DNA of 64,000 nucleotides, taken from Keratinibaculum paraultunense. Lineage in GTDB: Bacteria > Bacillota > Clostridia > Tissierellales > Tepidimicrobiaceae. The first letter of the stretch is position 1; every line of letters starts with the position of its first letter. The position numbers and the translations under genes were made by a program. The DNA is taken from assembly GCF_016767175.1 (NCBI RefSeq), contig NZ_CP068564.1, positions 434,001 to 498,000 on the forward strand, written 5' to 3'. The notes below the pieces were generated by a model. The model searched no databases. It was not told where the DNA came from and saw only the letters and a list, made by a program, of their open reading frames with translations. This document shows positions 8,752 through 22,513 of this stretch, in pieces.

Positions 8752-9525
8752 ATGACTAACTATTTAAAATCAAACTATATACTTGAAAAACATATATACA
8801 TAGGAAATATTCCAGCTATACTTTTTAGATCTAAAGAAAACAAAGAGTTAATTCCAACAATAATATTTTATCATGGATGGAGTTCAGATAAAGAAACTCA
8901 GAGAATGAGAGGTTTTATATTATCATCTGTAGGGTATCAGGTGATTATTCCTGATGCTATTTATCATGGAGAAAGAAATGCACTTGATAACTATGATCTG
9001 GAGGATGCAGCAGAATATTTTTGGGATACTATATTTACAAATATTGAGGAATCAAGCATTATAATGGATGAATTAGTATCCAAATATGACGCAGATCCAA
9101 ATAGGATTGGAGTTATGGGAAATTCCATGGGAGGTTTTACAGCAGCAGGAGTATTTGCCCATAATCCTGATATAAAAGCATTAGTAGTACTTAATGGCTC
9201 CTGTGCGTGGGAAATTTCTAATAAAATATTTAAAAAATCATTTGAGATAAAAACAACTGAAGAGCAGAAACCAGTTGAAGAAAAAATAATAAAAATGGAT
9301 CCTATAAATAATTTAGAATCTTTAGTAAATAGACCTATACTTTTATTGCATGGGGATAGCGATACAGTAGTATCTGTTGAAGGTCAAACAGTATTTTATA
9401 ATAAGATAAGGTCTATGTATGAAGATAAGGAAAAGATAAAGTTTATTCAATACCCAGACCTAAATCATTTTGTTACTACTAATATGATGGAGGAAAGTGT
9501 AGCTTGGTTTTATAAATATCTGTAA
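8752..9525 (+). CDS. Alpha/beta hydrolase (dienelactone hydrolase / prolyl-oligopeptidase-like)
   Basis: A serine hydrolase of ~257 residues with the alpha/beta fold. The oxyanion region is FYHGWSSDKE, the nucleophile elbow GNSMGG, the acid HGDSDTVV and the histidine DLNHFVTT, so the triad is complete. It resembles the cytosolic YtfL/YitV-type esterases of Firmicutes, whose natural substrates are poorly known. AAAAGGAG before ATG 8752 decides the start; an upstream ATG at 8728 would contain this ribosome site. It is monocistronic, followed by an imperfect inverted repeat and a terminator. Confidence 0.85.
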   Translation: MTNYLKSNYILEKHIYIGNIPAILFRSKENKELIPTIIFYHGWSSDKETQRMRGFILSSVGYQVIIPDAIYHGERNALDNYDLEDAAEYFWDTIFTNIEESSIIMDELVSKYDADPNRIGVMGNSMGGFTAAGVFAHNPDIKALVVLNGSCAWEISNKIFKKSFEIKTTEEQKPVEEKIIKMDPINNLESLVNRPILLLHGDSDTVVSVEGQTVFYNKIRSMYEDKEKIKFIQYPDLNHFVTTNMMEESVAWFYKYL

Positions 9526-9659
9526 GTGTATGTATGATATGATAATAGGACTTGTTCCCAAGAAAGTTATTAATGGAGATAAAACATGTTAATAGAGTTA
9601 AGTTTATAGGAAATAATATACTATAATTCACTAGTTGAATTATAACTGAAATAAGGATT

Positions 9660-9692
9660 ATTCTGAGGTATTAATATCTCAGAATATTTTTT
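9660..9692 (+). terminator. Rho-independent terminator
   Basis: Stem ATTCTGAG/CTCAGAAT with a 10-base loop, followed by a T-rich run. It ends the transcript of the upstream hydrolase and separates it from guaB. Confidence 0.75.
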
Positions 9693-9702
9693 AATAAACT
9701 CC

Positions 9703-9731
9703 TTGACAGTTATAAGATTCTCTGCTAATTT
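9703..9731 (+). promoter_or_regulatory. guaB: Candidate sigma-A promoter for guaBA
   Basis: TTGACA, 17 bases, then TAATTT. The -35 is perfect, the -10 weak. It lies about 110 bases before the guaB start. Confidence 0.5.
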
Positions 9732-9817
9732 TAAAAGAAACATTATTCAGCGTAAATATTATGCATTCACATTTTTTAGAGTAAGTAATTTCTTCAATTG
9801 TGGTATACTAATAATAA

Positions 9818-11290
<1,473 letters not shown>

Positions 11291-15810: not shown

Positions 15811-15858
15811 TTGACAGTATTTTGTTATTTTGATATCATTAATTTAGTTAAATATTGT

Positions 15859-16009
15859 CCTTATGGTGCATTATATGCTTAAAAGGGAAATTTGGTGAAA
15901 GTCCAATGCGGTCCCGCCACTGTAACGATGAGTAGACTATAAAATGCCACTGAATATTTTGGGAAGGCATAGTCTATGATGAGTCGGAGCCAGGAGACCT
16001 ACCATAAGG
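15859..16009 (+). ncRNA. Cobalamin riboswitch aptamer
   Basis: The closing stem CCTTATGGT/ACCATAAGG encloses the conserved elements of the B12 riboswitch: AAAAGGGAAATTTGGTGAAA, the core GTCCCGCCACTGTAA and the B12 box AGCCAGGAGACCTACC. A loop-forming hairpin (TCCCACGGAGGATGGGA) and a terminator follow. Binding of an adenosyl- or other cobamide is expected to shut off the downstream uptake operon. Confidence 0.95.
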
Positions 16010-16069
16010 TTCTACTTACTTATCCCACGGAGGATGGGAAGGTGTAAATTTTTAATATTAAAAACGCTG

Positions 16070-16111
16070 ACATCTTTCCTTCTATTTTATAAGTGGGGGA
16101 GATGTTTTTTT
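16070..16111 (+). terminator. Riboswitch-controlled terminator
   Basis: Stem ACATCTTTCC with a partner GGGGGAGATGT (some G-U pairs), followed by seven T. It lies between the B12 aptamer and the first structural gene and is the likely expression platform. Confidence 0.8.
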
Positions 16112-16141
16112 ATATTAAATTAATTAAAGGAGGAGGATATT

Positions 16142-18316
16142 GTGAAAAAATTTAACAGTAATTTAAAAAGATTAATATCATCATTAATGATATTGATGAT
16201 GATATTAACACTAATACCTTTAAATGTATTTGCAGATAAGGAAACTAAAGGTATTGATGTTTGGATTAGGATTGAAGGACATGATAAGAGTTTAGTAGAG
16301 TTTAAAAAATTAAATGTAGAAGCTTACGATATAAGCTATGTAGATGGATTAGAAAATTTTAAATCTGAAAAACCATTACTTATTCATGCAATAGTTAAGG
16401 CATTGGAAGAAGCTAATATAGATGTAAAAGATCCAAAAGTATTTTCTGCAGCAGGTGGTTTTATAAGTGGAATAGGTGATTACAGGAGTGAAAAAGGAGG
16501 ATGGATGTATAAAATAAATGGAGAATTTTCATCCTCTGGAGTTACAGAATATGAACTAAAAGAAAACGATGTTATAGACATGTTCTATGTATTGGATTGG
16601 ACAAACTATTATTCTGGGAAACTTGAAGCTACATCAGAAATAGCAAATGTGGGAGAAGAAGTAATTTTGAAATTTACGGCAAAAAAAGAAGAATATGGTG
16701 TAGAACATGATTATAAACCAGTTAAAGATGGAGTTATAAAAGTTAAAGGTGAAAATGAAGAAAAAGAATATGTAACTGATGATAAGGGACAAGTTAAAAT
16801 TGTTTTTGATAAGCCTGGCAAATATAAGATATTGGCTGACAAACAATTGAAAGAAGGTAATATAGTTCGTCCAAGACCTTTAGTAATTGAAGTAAAAGAG
16901 AGAACAAAAATAGATAAATCAATAGACGATGCTATAAATTGGTTATTAAAAAATGATGAAGTTGATGAATGGACAATTATGGATTTGGCTCGTGCCAATA
17001 AAGAAATTCCTAAAATTTATTTGGATGAATTTAAAAAAGAGATTGAAGATAATAAGGGTAAATTTGATAGCATAACGGATTATGCTAAATATTCAATTGT
17101 GGCATCTTCATTAGGATTAGATGCAATAGATTTATTTGGATATAATCTTATAGAAAAAATATATAATCATGAAGATATTTTTGCCAAAGGATATAATGGA
17201 GGAATATTTGCTTTATTGGCATTAGATTCTAAGAATTATAAAATACCAGAAGATGCAAAATGGACTAGAGATAATATAATAAAAGGTTTATTACAAGGGC
17301 AAAAGAAAGATGGAGGATTTGCTTGGGCAGAAAATTGGGATAGTGATGTTGATTTAACTGCTATGGCTTTACAAGCATTATCCAATTATAAAGATAGAGA
17401 AGATGTAAAGACTTGTATAAAAAAAGGGTTAGATTTCTTATCGAAAAAACAACAAAAAGATGGAGGATATGTAAGTGAATTTACTGGAGATTCTAGCGAA
17501 TCTGTAGCACAAGTTATATTAGCATTAACTAGTTTAGATATAGATCCTCTTAATGATAAAAGATTTATAAAAGATGCTAATTTATTAGAAAAACTATTAT
17601 CTTTTCAAACAAAAGATGGAGGATTTGAACATAATATAGGGAATGGACCATCAGCAATTTCTACTGAACAAGCTTTAAGAGGACTTATTGGATATCAAAG
17701 ATTTACAAATGGAAAAAGTAAGTTTTACGATATGAGAGATGCAAAATTAGTAGAATTTCCAGCAGAAACAAAAGTTAGTTTTGATGATATAGATAAAGCT
17801 TCTAATTGGGCTAAGGAATATATCATAAAAGCTAAAGAGTTAAAATTAATGGAAGGAAAAGGAAATAATAAATTTGATCCAAAGGCTGATATGACAAGAG
17901 CTGAATTTGCTACTTTATTGGTTAATTTATTAAAACTAGAAGATTCCGATATCAATGATAAAGAAAATATATTTATAGATGTTAAACCAGGTGTTTGGTA
18001 CTATGATTCAGTTATGAAAGCCTATAAAGAGGGAATAATTAAAGGAAAAGGAAATAATAAATTTGAACCAGATAGTCCTATTACTAGAGAACAAATGGCA
18101 GTAATGTTAGATAGAGCTTTAAAATTAGAAACTAAAGTAGAAAAGCAGAATATAAAAGATATAGATAAAGTTTCTGATTGGGCAGTTGATTCAGTAAATC
18201 TTGTAGTTCAATTAGGCATAATGGAGGGAGTAGGAGGTAATATATTTAATCCTAAAGGAAAAGTAACTAGAGAAATGGCAGCTGCTATTATAGTAAGGAT
18301 TTACGAATTGGACTAA
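16142..18316 (+). CDS. S-layer anchored transcobalamin-like surface protein (DUF4430, alpha-toroid, three SLH)
   Basis: A 724-residue exported protein. The signal peptide ends around NVFA-DK (residue ~32). A DUF4430 domain follows (about 38-145; GGWMYKING), the fold found as the C-terminal domain of transcobalamin/intrinsic factor. Next is an Ig-like segment (150-250). Then comes an alpha/alpha-toroid of prenyltransferase/transcobalamin type (about 255-515) with the repeats QKKDGGFAW, QQKDGGYVS and QTKDGGFEH. Three SLH repeats (about 545-724; MTRAEFA, ITREQMA, VTREMAA) tether it to the cell wall. Both halves of the animal B12 carriers are thus present in reversed order. The B12 riboswitch upstream and ECF genes downstream support cobamide capture at the surface. 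GTG start with AAAGGAGGAGG. Confidence 0.88.
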   Translation: MKKFNSNLKRLISSLMILMMILTLIPLNVFADKETKGIDVWIRIEGHDKSLVEFKKLNVEAYDISYVDGLENFKSEKPLLIHAIVKALEEANIDVKDPKVFSAAGGFISGIGDYRSEKGGWMYKINGEFSSSGVTEYELKENDVIDMFYVLDWTNYYSGKLEATSEIANVGEEVILKFTAKKEEYGVEHDYKPVKDGVIKVKGENEEKEYVTDDKGQVKIVFDKPGKYKILADKQLKEGNIVRPRPLVIEVKERTKIDKSIDDAINWLLKNDEVDEWTIMDLARANKEIPKIYLDEFKKEIEDNKGKFDSITDYAKYSIVASSLGLDAIDLFGYNLIEKIYNHEDIFAKGYNGGIFALLALDSKNYKIPEDAKWTRDNIIKGLLQGQKKDGGFAWAENWDSDVDLTAMALQALSNYKDREDVKTCIKKGLDFLSKKQQKDGGYVSEFTGDSSESVAQVILALTSLDIDPLNDKRFIKDANLLEKLLSFQTKDGGFEHNIGNGPSAISTEQALRGLIGYQRFTNGKSKFYDMRDAKLVEFPAETKVSFDDIDKASNWAKEYIIKAKELKLMEGKGNNKFDPKADMTRAEFATLLVNLLKLEDSDINDKENIFIDVKPGVWYYDSVMKAYKEGIIKGKGNNKFEPDSPITREQMAVMLDRALKLETKVEKQNIKDIDKVSDWAVDSVNLVVQLGIMEGVGGNIFNPKGKVTREMAAAIIVRIYELD

Positions 18317-18343
18317 GGTTTTTTAAGGGAGGAGCATAAATAA

Positions 18344-19036
18344 TTGAAAAACAGAAAAATATTTGTTTTAATTTCATTAATCCTCATTTTAAGTTTAATA
18401 TTTGTAGGATGCAGTAAAAAATCAAATACAGAAAAAAATAATAAAATAGAATTAAAAGAAAGCACTAAGAACGTAGAAGTGGAGGATGAAGAGAAAGAAG
18501 AAAATACAATAGAAGTAGAAAATGAAGAATCTTCTGCTACTGAGGATAAAGAATCACCTAAATCTACTACAAAAGAGGAATCTAGTAAACCAAGTACAAC
18601 AAACACAACAGAAGTTAAAAAAGAAAAAGAGGCAACTAGTAAAACTGAGAAAGATAGCACATCTACCCCTGTTGTAAACAAAAAACCTACTGTTACAATA
18701 ACTATAGTTGGTCCAGAAGATGTAGGAACTATATTGGGTTTAACTGAGGTGGAATTAAATGATGGGGACACGGTATTTGATGTATTAAAGAGAGTAGTAA
18801 AAGATAAAGGAATTCAAATGGAATATAAAGGTAGGAAATCTAGTGTATACATTCGAGGAATACACAATATATATGAATTCGATAGAGGACCTGAATCTGG
18901 ATGGGTATATAGAGTAAATGGTAAAGTTCCTCAAGTTAGTTGTGGTGCATATAAATTAAAAGATGGGGATAAAATAGAGTGGTTATATACAACAAATTTA
19001 GGGAAAGAATTTGGTGCTCCAGGAGGAGGAAAATAA
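18344..19036 (+). CDS. DUF4430 lipoprotein, probable cobamide-binding relay
   Basis: A 230-residue lipoprotein. A short signal peptide ends with the lipobox-like LIFVGC (Cys ~21; Phe at -3 is slightly atypical). A ~90-residue Glu/Lys/Ser/Thr-rich linker then acts as a flexible tether. The C-terminal ~115 residues form a DUF4430 domain (VTITIVGPED, GDTVFDVLKRVVKDKG, GPESGWVYRVNGKVP, LKDGDKIEWLY). It resembles the first domain of the upstream SLH protein. It likely takes the ligand from the wall-bound protein to the ECF permease. TTG start with GGGAGGAG. The stop codon overlaps the next start (TAATG). Confidence 0.85.
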   Translation: MKNRKIFVLISLILILSLIFVGCSKKSNTEKNNKIELKESTKNVEVEDEEKEENTIEVENEESSATEDKESPKSTTKEESSKPSTTNTTEVKKEKEATSKTEKDSTSTPVVNKKPTVTITIVGPEDVGTILGLTEVELNDGDTVFDVLKRVVKDKGIQMEYKGRKSSVYIRGIHNIYEFDRGPESGWVYRVNGKVPQVSCGAYKLKDGDKIEWLYTTNLGKEFGAPGGGK

Positions 19037-19911
19037 TGGGCTATGGATTTTCCTCTATCCATCCCCTCCCTTCATTTTTATATTATATTGGTGCTATAAT
19101 TTTTACTATGACTTTCTATCATCCTGTCTTTTTACTTTCAGGTCTTTTTATTTTAATTATTATAAATCTTATTCAAGATAAAGGGAAAAAATTAAAATCT
19201 TATAGTAAATTTTATTTATTCATGGGATTGATTATAGTAATATTAAACCCAATAATTTCAAGCAGGGGTGAAACTGTGCTTTTTTATGTATTTGATAAGG
19301 TAATTACACTGGAATCTTTTTTATATGGTATTTGTACTATGCTTTCTTTGATAAGTATAATGATACTTTTTTTATCCTATAACATTATAATTACTGATGA
19401 TAAATTTATGTATTTATTTTCAGGTATACTTCCAAATACTAGTTTTCTAATAATGATGACTATGCGATTTGTTCCATTGTTTAAAAGCAGAGCAGAGGAA
19501 ATAGCTATTGTTCAAAAATTAAAGGGTGGAGAATATTATAAAAATAGTTTTAAAGAAAAAATAAAAGAAGGTATGCAGATATTAAGTATACTTGTTACTT
19601 GGTCTTTAGAAGATTCTATACAAACAGCAAGATCAATGAGATCTAGAGGATATGGAATAGTTAAAGATAGATCTTTTTATTTTAATTATAAGATGAGTGC
19701 ATTAGACATAATAGTTCTTATAGCTATTATAATACTAATATTTATATTGCTTATTTCTTGGAATATGAATTTGTTTAGTTATCAAATATATCCAAAAGTA
19801 CAGTCTATTAAATTTGACTTTAAAACTACATTATTTTTTATTTTATACTCATTATATATGGGTATTCCTATAATCATAGAAGGGATTGACAAGATGAAAT
19901 GGCACAAATAG
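19036..19911 (+). CDS. ECF transporter T component (EcfT/CbiQ-like)
   Basis: A 291-residue membrane protein with about six hydrophobic helices, homologous to the energy-coupling transmembrane subunit of ECF importers (CbiQ/EcfT). Hallmarks are the cytoplasmic coupling motifs with Ala-Arg-Gly: the final one reads SIQTARSMRSRGYG and an upstream region MRFVPLFKSRAEEIAIVQKLKGG. Start ATG 19036 has AGGAGGAGG and overlaps the lipoprotein stop. It overlaps the ATPase gene by 13 bases, so all components are translationally coupled. Confidence 0.9.
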   Translation: MGYGFSSIHPLPSFLYYIGAIIFTMTFYHPVFLLSGLFILIIINLIQDKGKKLKSYSKFYLFMGLIIVILNPIISSRGETVLFYVFDKVITLESFLYGICTMLSLISIMILFLSYNIIITDDKFMYLFSGILPNTSFLIMMTMRFVPLFKSRAEEIAIVQKLKGGEYYKNSFKEKIKEGMQILSILVTWSLEDSIQTARSMRSRGYGIVKDRSFYFNYKMSALDIIVLIAIIILIFILLISWNMNLFSYQIYPKVQSIKFDFKTTLFFILYSLYMGIPIIIEGIDKMKWHK

Positions 19912-21551
19912 AATTGATAGAATACTCTTTTAAATACCCAAGAGAAGATAAAAGTGCTTTAGATAATATAAATTTATCCATAGATGAAGGAGAATTTGTT
20001 TTAATCTGTGGTCCTTCAGGTTGTGGAAAAACTACACTACTGCAGCAACTAAAAAAAGAGATAATACCAGAAGGGAAAATAACAGGTAGAGCTCTTTATG
20101 AAGGTGTTCCTATAAAGGATTTAGATGATTTTATAGCTGCTTCAAATATAGGAATGGTGTTTCAAGAGCCAGAATCTCAAATAGTTACTGATAGAGTAAT
20201 AAATGAATTAGCTTTTTCTATGGAAAATTTAGGATTTCCATTAGAAAAAATGGGTAGAAGAATGGGAGAAATGGTACATTTTTTTGGGATAGAGGATAAA
20301 TTATATGAAAAAATTCATAACTTATCAGGGGGACAAAAGCAAGTTTTAAATCTTGCGTCAGTATTGCTTTTACAACCAAAGGTTCTATTATTAGACGAGC
20401 CTACTTCTCAATTAGATCCAGTATCCTCAAAGGAATTTATTCAAATGGTTCAAAATTTAAATAGGGATTTTTCAATAACAGTAATTATTACTGAACATAG
20501 ATTGGAGGAATTATTTCATATAGTAGATAGAGTAGTTATGCTGGATGAAGGACAAATAAAATATGATGGGAAACCTAAAGATGTAGCAAAAGAGATATAT
20601 GATAATAATGATGAAATATTTTTCAATTATCTCCCATCTATTTCTAAATTATATTTTAAATTAGATAAAGAAAAGGATAATGTTCCTCTTACCATAAGAG
20701 ATGCAAAAAAATGGATAAAAAATATTTCCATAGATAAAGAAATGCAAGAGAAACAAAAAATAGAAGATAAGAAAAATATTAAAAATACTATTATTAATAT
20801 TAAAAATATATCTTTTAGGTATGAAAGAGGAAAACCTTTGGTACTTGATAAATTAAGCTTAGAGATAAATCAAGGTGAATTTTTATCTATTTTAGGAGGG
20901 AATGGTTCAGGGAAATCTACATTATTGAAGGTAGTTGCAGGAGCATATAAACCTCAATATGGGAAAATATATGTAAATGGTAAAAAACTTCATAATATAG
21001 ATGAAGATAAAAGATTTAGATATATAGGTTATTTAGATCAAAATCCAATGCTTTATTTTTTACATGATAGGGTACAGGATGAAATATATGATAGAGCAGA
21101 AAAAATTAATGCAGCGGAAAAAGATGTTCAATATATTATAGATTTATTTGAATTAAATAACATACTGCATAGGCATCCTTACGATATAAGTGGGGGAGAG
21201 AAACAAAAAGTTGCATTAGCTATTGTATTGTTAGCTAAGCCTAAAATATTATTGTTAGATGAGCCTACTAAAGGGATAGATCCAATTTCTAAAAGAAATA
21301 TTGGAAATCTTTTAATAAATTTAAAAAAATCGGGAATTACCTTGGTAGTGGCTACTCATGATATAGAATTTGCAGCTAGATTTTCAGATCGCTGTGCTTT
21401 ATTATTTGATAAGGATATAAGAGCGGTTGAAGAACCTAACACTTTCTTTAGCCAAAATTATTTTTATACTACTTCTATAAATAGAATAATAAGAGATAAA
21501 ATACCTAATGCAATTATTTGGGAGGATGTGGTTAACCATGTATATATCTAG
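19899..21551 (+). CDS. ECF transporter ATPase, two fused ABC domains
   Basis: A 550-residue protein with two complete ABC ATPase domains in one chain, equivalent to EcfA1-EcfA2. Domain 1: Walker A GPSGCGKTT, signature NLSGGQKQ, Walker B VLLLDEPTSQLD. Domain 2 (from about residue 300): GGNGSGKST, DISGGEKQK, ILLLDEPTKGID. Both H-loops are visible (ITEHRLEE; VATHDIEF). The lysine-rich linker connects them. Fused A subunits with their own T and S genes indicate a dedicated (group I-like) importer, not the shared module. Confidence 0.94.
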   Translation: MAQIELIEYSFKYPREDKSALDNINLSIDEGEFVLICGPSGCGKTTLLQQLKKEIIPEGKITGRALYEGVPIKDLDDFIAASNIGMVFQEPESQIVTDRVINELAFSMENLGFPLEKMGRRMGEMVHFFGIEDKLYEKIHNLSGGQKQVLNLASVLLLQPKVLLLDEPTSQLDPVSSKEFIQMVQNLNRDFSITVIITEHRLEELFHIVDRVVMLDEGQIKYDGKPKDVAKEIYDNNDEIFFNYLPSISKLYFKLDKEKDNVPLTIRDAKKWIKNISIDKEMQEKQKIEDKKNIKNTIINIKNISFRYERGKPLVLDKLSLEINQGEFLSILGGNGSGKSTLLKVVAGAYKPQYGKIYVNGKKLHNIDEDKRFRYIGYLDQNPMLYFLHDRVQDEIYDRAEKINAAEKDVQYIIDLFELNNILHRHPYDISGGEKQKVALAIVLLAKPKILLLDEPTKGIDPISKRNIGNLLINLKKSGITLVVATHDIEFAARFSDRCALLFDKDIRAVEEPNTFFSQNYFYTTSINRIIRDKIPNAIIWEDVVNHVYI

Positions 21552-22224
21552 AAAATATGCAGGGTTGACCATAATAGTGTTTATTATATTATTAATAATA
21601 TCAACTTTTTGGGCAGATAAGCATTATCTTACTATTAGTTTTATAATGCTATTAGTTATTATGGCTCCTTTTTTTATAGGATTTGAAAGGAAAAAATTAA
21701 AAGCAGAAGAAATGGTGATTATAGCCATGTTGTCTGCTATAGCTGCTATAGGTAGAGTCCCGTTTGCAGCCATACCATCAGTTCAACCAACTTCTTTTGT
21801 CATTATCATGTCTGCTTTTACTTTTGGTGGAGATGTAGGTTTTATGGTAGGAAGTATTGCAGCTTTAGTATCCAATATGATTTTAGGGCAAGGACCTTGG
21901 ACTCCTTGGCAAATGTTTTCTTGGGGTATGATGGGATTTACTGCAGGAATACTAAGAAATACCAAATTTATGAATACTAAAATTGGAAGGTGTATGTTTG
22001 GAGCTATATGGGGATTTTTATTTGGTTGGATAATGAACTTATGGGGAGTACTGTATTTAGATTCCAGTTCACTTACTTGGAAGGTATATTTAGCTTCTTG
22101 TATAGCTAGTTTCAAATTTGACTTAAATCACGCTGTATCAAATGTAGTGTTTCTATCTTTATTTAGCACTAGATGGATAAAGATACTAGATAGGATAAAA
22201 ATTAAATATGGACTTATGAAGTAA
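21538..22224 (+). CDS. ECF transporter S component, predicted cobamide-specific
   Basis: A 229-residue hydrophobic protein with about six helices. Typical S-component features are the N-terminal cytosolic start of the substrate-binding module (KAEEMVIIAMLSAIAAIGR) with alanine spacing for docking on the T subunit, and GPWTPWQMFSWGMMGFTAG. It resembles the CblT/CbrT-type S components predicted or shown for cobalamin compounds. The riboswitch upstream of the operon supports this. I set the start at ATG 21538 because GGGAGGATG lies just before it; the frame overlaps the ATPase gene by 14 bases. The specificity is inference from context and family resemblance. Confidence 0.85.
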   Translation: MYISRKYAGLTIIVFIILLIISTFWADKHYLTISFIMLLVIMAPFFIGFERKKLKAEEMVIIAMLSAIAAIGRVPFAAIPSVQPTSFVIIMSAFTFGGDVGFMVGSIAALVSNMILGQGPWTPWQMFSWGMMGFTAGILRNTKFMNTKIGRCMFGAIWGFLFGWIMNLWGVLYLDSSSLTWKVYLASCIASFKFDLNHAVSNVVFLSLFSTRWIKILDRIKIKYGLMK

Positions 22225-22272: not shown

Positions 22273-22295
22273 AAAATTAGAAAATCGAATAATTA

Positions 22296-22364
22296 GCTCA
22301 TATAATTCTCATAATATGGATGAGAAGTTTCTACAAAATGACCGTAAATCATTTGGCTATGAGC
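22296..22364 (+). ncRNA. Guanine (purine) riboswitch aptamer
   Basis: P1 is GCTCAT/ATGAGC, P2 TTCTCAT/ATGAGAA, P3 AAATGA/TCATTT. Core joining sequences are TATAA, GTTTCTAC and GGCTATGAG. The specificity base in the J3/1 segment (GCTATG) is C, as in guanine aptamers, not T as in adenine aptamers. It is directly followed by a second aptamer. Confidence 0.93.
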
Positions 22365-22368
22365 GAAA

Positions 22369-22467
22369 GTGTACCTAGGGTTCCGGAGATTATAATCTTG
22401 TCTGGTCCGAGCGGTACAGGTATTGTTGTTATTTAAGTACAATATTACACCGAAGGGATAAAAGCCC
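22369..22467 (+). ncRNA. PRPP riboswitch aptamer (ykkC subtype 2b)
   Basis: ykkC-class consensus elements are visible: CTAGGGTTCCGG, GTCTGGTCCGAG, ACACCGAAGGGATAAAAGCCC in pieces, closed by GTGTA/TACAC. The tandem arrangement behind a guanine aptamer in front of purine genes is the known hallmark of PRPP-sensing ykkC variants; guanidine-I or ppGpp specificity is less likely here. Confidence 0.85.
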
Positions 22468-22513
22468 AGTCGGGTAGGTTTCGCTTGACCTACCTGACTG
22501 GGTTAATTTTTTT
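22465..22513 (+). terminator. Terminator controlled by the tandem riboswitch
   Basis: A 15-bp stem CCCAGTCGGGTAGGT with ACCTACCTGACTGGG (one G-U), followed by a T-run. Its 5' arm shares the CCC of the PRPP aptamer core, so PRPP binding should sequester it and favour read-through, while guanine should favour termination. Confidence 0.88.

What the first reader, a model, noticed from the sequence alone, without database searches (positions are those of the whole stretch)
15859..22224. B12-riboswitch operon encoding a bacterial transcobalamin-like capture chain
Riboswitch, SLH-anchored protein with DUF4430 plus alpha-toroid (both domains of animal B12 carriers), DUF4430 lipoprotein and a dedicated ECF T/A-A/S set form one overlapping operon. 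It suggests hand-over of cobamides from the cell wall to a lipoprotein to an ECF S component.
Basis: partly seen in the sequence, partly recalled or inferred. Interest (0 to 1): 0.85.

Follow-up and report, generated by a model that had tools for sequence, protein, structure and literature searches.

The report
Riboswitch-controlled bacterial vitamin B12 uptake operon
A vitamin-B12-sensing RNA switch controls five genes that look like a machine for catching B12-type vitamins at the cell wall, with domains also found in our own B12 carrier proteins, and pumping them into the cell; similar gene sets occur in many other Bacillota and were largely predicted in 2007.

Summary
A full cobalamin riboswitch (15847-16020) with a terminator (16069-16106) precedes five tightly packed genes: an exported protein with DUF4430, alpha-toroid and SLH domains; a DUF4430 lipoprotein; EcfT; a fused EcfA-EcfA'; and an S component. 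The substrate is well supported: the S component's best match among solved proteins is CbrT, a proven cobalamin/cobinamide importer (6FNP, E 4.6e-13; family profile 5.8e-22). In related genomes, 62 of 99 DUF4430 loci have a cobalamin riboswitch 5' on the same strand, against 0 of 40 hand-picked control stretches. Starting from the S component, 54 of 80 loci have one upstream and 73 of 80 have DUF4430. Corrinoid uptake is therefore likely (about 0.9). The wall-to-lipoprotein-to-S hand-over is plausible but not shown. It is not a new kind: Burroughs et al. 2007 predicted bacterial toroid+SLBB (DUF4430) proteins, often with a second SLBB protein and CbiO/CbiQ, for B12 scavenging. Added here: the riboswitch link, the CbrT kinship, the conserved gene order, and a host that also encodes corrin synthesis and a BtuFCD-type importer, so simple auxotrophy does not explain the operon.

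The parts
15811..15839 (+). candidate sigma-70 promoter TTGACA-17-TATCAT just before the aptamer
   Evidence: 11 of 12 consensus positions; such sites are no commoner than chance in the region (40 found, 43.3 expected), so only its position suggests it
15847..16020 (+). cobalamin riboswitch aptamer (RF00174)
   Evidence: 106.7 bits, model 1-189/189
16036..16045 (+). candidate antiterminator arm, 10 contiguous pairs (G-U allowed) possible with 16070-16079; its 5' end also lies in a small hairpin 16023-16039
   Evidence: pairing read by eye from the sequence; small hairpin in the fold
16069..16106 (+). intrinsic terminator hairpin followed by a U-run: expression platform
   Evidence: fold of 16021-16120, z -3.27; the simple consensus scan did not list it
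16142..18316 (+). P1: signal peptide (by eye), DUF4430 (aa 87-148), a beta-strand region (Ig-like is my guess), alpha-toroid (about aa 254-525), three SLH repeats (about aa 547-720); wall-anchored candidate B12 captor
   Evidence: Pfam; SLH matches the SLH domain of S-layer protein Sap; toroid model pLDDT mostly above 95, DUF4430 part poorly modelled
18344..19036 (+). P2: lipoprotein, charged low-complexity linker of about 100 aa, DUF4430 (aa 141-216)
   Evidence: Pfam 1.5e-21; lipobox FVGC and linker read from the translation
19036..19911 (+). EcfT / CbiQ-like transmembrane component; ORF listed from GTG 18979, ATG 19036 overlaps the P2 stop
   Evidence: PF02361 5.4e-7, no NCBIfam match at E 0.001; sequence
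19899..21551 (+). fused EcfA-EcfA' ATPase, two ABC domains
   Evidence: PF00005 two stretches; TIGR04520 358.7 bits, two stretches
21508..22224 (+). CbrT-like S component (alternative ATG 21538), predicted cobamide/cobinamide binder
   Evidence: 6FNP ECF-CbrT E 4.6e-13 alone, 5.8e-22 as family profile; model pLDDT 92.4

Best explanation
It is a cobalamin-repressed import operon for cobamides and probably also cobinamide. When adenosylcobalamin is scarce, the aptamer is empty, an antiterminator forms and the five genes are transcribed; when it is plentiful, the terminator forms. P1 is exported and held in the wall by SLH repeats, where its DUF4430 and toroid domains are proposed to catch corrinoids. 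P2, a lipid-anchored DUF4430 domain on a long flexible tether, is proposed to carry the ligand to the membrane. The CbrT-like S component binds it and, with EcfT and the fused EcfAA', imports it by ATP hydrolysis. Shown by computation: riboswitch, terminator, gene content, S-component kinship, conserved linkage. Inferred from relatives: the S substrate and the direction of regulation. Inferred only: ligand binding by P1 and P2, and their order in a relay.
For: Riboswitch 106.7 bits; terminator z -3.27. S matches CbrT, shown to import Cbl and Cbi, with hemin not competing (PMC5997447 passages). At E<1e-3, 62 of 99 scanned DUF4430 loci have a riboswitch 5' on the same strand; 2 more have one elsewhere and 35 none. 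0 of 40 hand-picked control stretches of the same genomes have one at E<1e-3. Starting from S: 73 of 80 loci have DUF4430, 64 of 80 a toroid, 56 of 80 an upstream same-strand riboswitch at E<=0.1, 54 of them at E<1e-3 (my count). A DUF4430-T-A-S order in 62 of 100 and 60 of 80 loci. At genome level, 107 of 121 DUF4430-positive genomes have a cobalamin riboswitch against 120 of 172 negative (not corrected for kinship).
Against: The host encodes de novo corrin genes, nucleotide-loop genes and a riboswitch-led BtuFCD-type importer, so need is not obvious. The toroid fold is shared with many enzymes. 35 of 99 DUF4430 loci have no riboswitch at E<1e-3; in 10 of these the DUF4430 gene begins under 1 kb from the end of the stretch, so they were poorly testable, but the other 25 were testable in part or whole. 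14 of 80 S-first loci have DUF4430 and no riboswitch. Foldseek places S among S components of several substrates and 6FNP is not among the 50 rows shown. The DUF4430 part of P1 was not modelled with confidence. No binding data.
Confidence: 0.8

Rival explanations
1. The operon imports corrinoids, but P1 and P2 are not a relay: they act independently (P1 as wall-bound store or scavenger, P2 as a lid or assembly factor for S), and S alone suffices, as for CbrT in Lactobacillus. (Not exclusive with the precursor rival below.)
For: Solitary CbrT binds B12, and purified ECF-CbrT in liposomes transports it without an extracellular partner (PMC5997447 passages). Some S-first loci have T, A and S with no DUF4430 found though about 1.8-4.3 kb upstream of T is present: L206, L236 (with a riboswitch directly before T) and L249.
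Against: A DUF4430 gene (any size) directly before T is kept in 68 of 100 and 65 of 80 loci, so P2-type proteins seem tied to transport.
Confidence: 0.35
2. The substrate is heme or another tetrapyrrole rather than a corrinoid.
For: ECF heme importers are reported in Staphylococcus lugdunensis and, as cited there, in streptococci and L. sakei (PMC7299338 passages); that DUF4430 occurs in the L. sakei operon is only my recollection.
Against: Cobalamin riboswitch upstream; S related to CbrT, whose transport hemin does not compete for; riboswitch linkage across the class.
Confidence: 0.04
3. The target is mainly a precursor or remodelling substrate (cobinamide, other cobamides), complementing BtuFCD.
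For: The host has CobU, CobT, CobS and a separate riboswitch-led BtuFCD-type importer; CbrT takes cobinamide.
Against: Nothing in the sequence separates Cbl from Cbi; CbrT takes both.
Confidence: 0.3
4. P1 is a surface terpene cyclase-like enzyme unrelated to B12 that shares the operon by chance.
For: Squalene-hopene cyclases are its best fold match (Z 22.4) and best sequence match for the toroid.
Against: The class II cyclase motif DXDD (recalled) is not kept: 0 of 57 rows, 45 of them toroid rows, have D at its fourth position. SLH anchor, DUF4430 fusion and conserved linkage to the importer.
Confidence: 0.03

Closest known systems
Transcobalamin-like clade of the SLBB superfamily (Burroughs, Balaji, Iyer and Aravind 2007, PMC1796856; passages seen)
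   Different: Its main text has 0 occurrences of 'riboswitch', 'SLH', 'S-layer' and 'S component', and it says such hosts usually lack key B12 synthesis enzymes; this host has many of them
ECF-CbrT (Santos et al. 2018, PMC5997447, passages seen; PDB 6FNP)
   Same: S component is a sequence relative (E 4.6e-13); ECF architecture
   Different: CbrT of L. delbrueckii uses a shared ECF module, and no extracellular partner appears in the passages seen; here T and fused AA' are dedicated and two DUF4430 proteins are encoded
Animal transcobalamin, intrinsic factor and haptocorrin
   Same: An alpha-toroid and a DUF4430-type beta-grasp domain in one protein; toroid Z 18.6-19.2
   Different: Reverse domain order, wall anchor, no PF01122 match for the window protein
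BtuFCD
   Same: Riboswitch-led B12 importer; a BtuFCD-type set is also present in this genome
   Different: Unrelated transporter fold with a soluble Peripla_BP_2 binding protein
Isd heme relay of Gram-positive bacteria (partly from PMC7299338 passages, otherwise recalled)
   Same: Wall-anchored captors, lipoprotein, membrane importer: an analogy for the proposed relay
   Different: Different domains (NEAT) and ligand

Membership tests
Cobalamin riboswitch (RF00174) | Matches the curated covariance model over its full length above the gathering score | tested here: met
   106.7 bits against 31.5, positions 1-189
Cobalamin riboswitch (RF00174) | Binds adenosylcobalamin and lowers expression | not testable with these tools
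   Terminator and candidate antiterminator seen; no ligand test
SLBB transcobalamin-like clade / DUF4430 (PF14478) | Domain match above the Pfam cut-off in both proteins | tested here: met
   P1 42.3 and P2 77 bits against 23.8
SLBB transcobalamin-like clade / DUF4430 (PF14478) | Operon with CbiO/CbiQ-type genes and a second SLBB protein | tested here: met
   clade description
SLBB transcobalamin-like clade / DUF4430 (PF14478) | Beta-hairpin insert after the helix that contacts B12 | tested here: inconclusive
   The DUF4430 part of the P1 model has low confidence; P2 was not folded
CbrT cobalamin S components | Closer in sequence to CbrT than to other solved S components | tested here: met
   6FNP 4.6e-13 against 4hzu 0.39; profile 5.8e-22 against RibU (3p5n) 0.0022
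CbrT cobalamin S components | Structure closest to CbrT | tested here: inconclusive
   Foldseek lists several S components, best E 0.0097, 6FNP not among the 50 rows shown
CbrT cobalamin S components | Binds and transports cobalamin and cobinamide | not testable with these tools
   No assay
Animal B12 carriers (PF01122) | Match to the eukaryotic cobalamin-binding profile | tested here: not met
   Window P1 fragment no match at E<=0.1; 1 of 57 A3 members at 0.0084
Animal B12 carriers (PF01122) | Toroid followed by the beta-grasp domain in that order | tested here: not met
   Order reversed in P1: DUF4430 aa 87-148, toroid after aa 250; the B12 sandwich itself is not testable
Class II terpene cyclases | DXDD acid motif (recalled) | tested here: not met
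   Window has DVDL; 0 of 57 rows have D at the fourth position
SLH wall-anchored proteins | Three SLH repeats | tested here: met
   PF00395, three stretches, 6.8e-40

The most novel reading that the evidence does not exclude
A widespread class of ECF importers that, unlike the characterised ones, is fed by a two-step extracellular relay of transcobalamin-like proteins (wall captor, tethered lipoprotein, S component), kept even in B12 prototrophs, and preserving the bacterial source of the animal B12 carriers.
Probability: 0.45. Interest if true: 0.75.

Novelty: new member of a known kind. Interest (0 to 1): 0.52.

Why it matters
To my knowledge B12 uptake by Gram-positive bacteria is poorly known beyond BtuFCD and CbrT. 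A riboswitch-linked, CbrT-like system with wall and lipoprotein B12-binding candidates makes the 2007 SLBB prediction directly testable. If the relay is real it would give the first ECF importers known to me with dedicated extracellular binding proteins, and bacterial relatives for asking how animals acquired intrinsic factor and transcobalamin.

Tried and rejected
Toroid as proof of B12 binding: rejected, because the fold is shared with cyclases, sugar epimerases and glycosidases, and complement proteins head the Foldseek list. Terpene cyclase reading: rejected on the lost DXDD motif. Heme reading: kept only as a weak rival. A regular-expression riboswitch search found 16 of 100 loci and missed cases that the covariance models find, so a model was built instead. 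A first riboswitch alignment used wrong strands and was discarded. Foldseek with the S model did not single out CbrT. Auxotrophy as the reason for the operon: not supported for this host. Ten paper searches listed no paper that I could see tying DUF4430 to a B12 riboswitch or an ECF S component; for most papers only listings were seen, passages for eight (PMC4350170, PMC3766115, PMC1796856, PMC5997447, PMC7299338, PMC2667541, PMC10368641, PMC8386196). Rodionov 2009 and Verplaetse 2020 were not held, so such a statement there cannot be excluded.

Caveats on counts. The 100 DUF4430 loci (L065-L164) are the clusters listed with best E up to about 1e-14, minus one that I overlooked (G224:C1), plus three weaker second clusters in genomes already taken (L072, L075, L077). 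All three extras are linked; without them the count is 59 of 96. Weaker listed and unlisted matches were not fetched, so the set is biased to strong matches, and some genomes give more than one locus. L164 was not in the scan, hence n = 99 (it was scanned, no hit). 'Linked' allows an overlap of 250 bases and 200, because open frames were taken from stop to stop. One of the 62 linked loci (L139) has its riboswitch in the model's training set. The 40 control stretches were picked by hand, not drawn at random, from 39 of the same genomes. The 80 S-first loci are the best 80 of 591 relatives; several are cut at contig ends, and at least three (L184, L210, L229) lie on contigs of the same length as D-first loci (L113, L151, L114), so the two surveys overlap a little. 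One search scored at most 8 riboswitch candidates per genome; the 121 and 227 genomes are at E<=0.001 (119 and 223 over the family cut-offs) and include the window's own.
Full report
WHAT IS THERE. The window (position 434001-498000 of a single-contig 2.31 Mb genome) holds a complete cobalamin riboswitch at 15847-16020 (+), 106.7 bits. A hairpin with a U-run at 16069-16106 follows; the stretch 16021-16120 folds at -27.2 kcal/mol, z -3.27 against shuffles. Read by eye, 16036-16045 can pair over ten positions with the 5' arm of that terminator, which is the layout of a transcription-attenuating OFF switch; no ligand test was possible. A TTGACA-17-TATCAT site sits at 15811-15839, though such sites are as common as chance in the region.

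GENES. P1 (16142-18316) has a signal peptide (by eye), DUF4430, a beta-strand region, an alpha-toroid and three SLH repeats. P2 (18344-19036) is a lipoprotein by its lipobox, with a charged linker of about 100 residues and a DUF4430 domain. T starts at ATG 19036, overlapping the P2 stop by one base; A begins 13 bases inside T; S begins inside A. A is a fused pair of ABC domains. The next gene group has its own purine-type riboswitch at 22278, so the operon probably ends at S; but the scan found no terminator between S and that riboswitch, so read-through is possible.

SUBSTRATE. The S component alone hits 6FNP, ECF-CbrT, at E 4.6e-13; the next solved S component is at 0.39. A 49-member family profile hits it at 5.8e-22 against 0.0022 for RibU. 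ECF-CbrT imports cobalamin and cobinamide, and hemin does not compete (PMC5997447, passages seen). A Foldseek comparison of a confident S model (pLDDT 92.4) gave generic S-component matches and did not show 6FNP among its 50 rows, so the case rests on sequence.

LINKAGE SURVEY. In 293 genomes of the same class (the window's own included), 121 have DUF4430 and 227 a cobalamin riboswitch: 107 of 121 DUF4430-positive against 120 of 172 negative genomes (Fisher p 1.9e-4, not corrected for kinship). I fetched 100 DUF4430 loci and scanned 99 with a covariance model built from 31 riboswitches, the window's included. At E<1e-3, 62 of 99 have a riboswitch 5' on the same strand, 2 have one elsewhere and 35 none; the nearest DUF4430 lies within 500 bases in 46 of the 62. 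Leaving out three second loci that I had added by choice, it is 59 of 96. At the looser E<=1 the linked count is 66. Forty hand-picked 18-kb control stretches from the same genomes gave 0 at E<1e-3 (one hit at E 0.68). Ten of the 35 negatives have the DUF4430 gene beginning under 1 kb from the end of the stretch. In four genomes (G013, G044, G205, G222) a DUF4430 gene with T-A-S lacks a riboswitch while a large DUF4430 gene at a second fetched locus has one (L076/L077, L074/L075, L129/L130, L071/L072).

S-FIRST SURVEY. A scan of named genomes with the S family kept the best 80 of 591 relatives, many of them Bacilli by their titles (Paenibacillus, Bacillus, Lentilactobacillus), with some Clostridia. 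Of 80 loci, 73 have DUF4430, 64 a toroid, 60 a riboswitch at E<=0.1, 56 of these upstream on the same strand, and 54 at E<1e-3 (my count). 14 of 80 have DUF4430 without a riboswitch, including lactobacilli; one has an upstream riboswitch without DUF4430; 6 have neither. A DUF4430 gene lies directly before T in 68 of 100 and 65 of 80 loci, and DUF4430-T-A-S order holds in 62 of 100 and 60 of 80. The window is thus one member of a widespread operon type.

FOLD OF P1. The toroid was modelled with high confidence, the DUF4430 part was not. Best fold match is squalene-hopene cyclase (Z 22.4, 3.0 A, 251 residues); intrinsic factor (Z 19.2, 3.3 A, 238), haptocorrin (18.9, 3.2 A, 245) and transcobalamin (18.6, 3.5 A, 243) also match, but so do sugar epimerases. 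The fold therefore does not prove B12 binding. The fourth position of the cyclase acid motif is not D in any of 57 rows.

HOST METABOLISM. The genome has CbiD and, in the same cluster, proteins whose best NCBIfam matches are CbiH, CbiL, CbiC, CobB/CbiA, CobD, CbiB, CobQ, CbiO and CbiQ (10 of the stretch's 20 listed ORFs were scanned, and the CbiC and CobD matches lie below NCBI's cut-offs though at E under 1e-70), next to a riboswitch-led CbiM (identified by eye). It has CobT, CobU and CobS, a riboswitch-led binding protein with FecCD and ATPase partners that I read as BtuFCD (the families also serve iron carriers, so this rests on the riboswitch), eight B12-binding-domain matches, seven over the cut-off, and OraE. 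It is probably a B12 maker that also scavenges, unlike the usual hosts described in 2007.

WHAT IS KNOWN. Burroughs et al. 2007 (PMC1796856, passages seen) proposed that bacterial SLBB proteins fused to toroids, often with a second SLBB protein and CbiO/CbiQ genes, scavenge B12 or precursors, and that animals acquired the combination from Gram-positive bacteria. DUF4430 is named in 6 held papers (listing; a passage of one seen); no search listing tied it to ECF S components or riboswitches, but two key papers were not held.

VERDICT. Corrinoid import is likely (about 0.9). The two-step extracellular relay is an attractive inference, not a result. I file it as a new member of a known, predicted kind for which I found no experimental test.

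Noticed in passing
window 22278-22504: A purine riboswitch and a ykkC-type (called Guanidine-I by Rfam) aptamer stand in tandem, with a strong terminator-like hairpin, before a PurL-like gene; probably the known guanine-PRPP tandem (recalled, not tested).
   Followed up: no
L257 1634-3863 (own genome C1 94633-96862): A cobalamin riboswitch precedes a YitT/DUF2179 membrane protein followed by a CobW-type GTPase: a possible B12- or cobalt-related role for a YitT protein.
   Followed up: partly
L255 9376-11016: CobQ (cobyric acid synthase) may be split over two adjacent reading frames in the cbi cluster; only the ORF 9376-10215, which matches the N-terminal half of the profile, was scanned.
   Followed up: no
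L065-L164 and L175-L254: In 33 of 100 and 8 of 80 loci the two ATPases and the S component lie in one open frame, an A-A-S polypeptide, for example L071, L094, L119.
   Followed up: partly
L245: A 5.4-kb contig titled Nitrososphaerota archaeon carries DUF4430-T-(A-A-S); possibly mis-binned Bacillota DNA.
   Followed up: no
L212, L213, L220: In these lactobacilli the toroid and DUF4430 genes lie after S instead of before T, with no cobalamin riboswitch found: a different arrangement worth testing for substrate.
   Followed up: no
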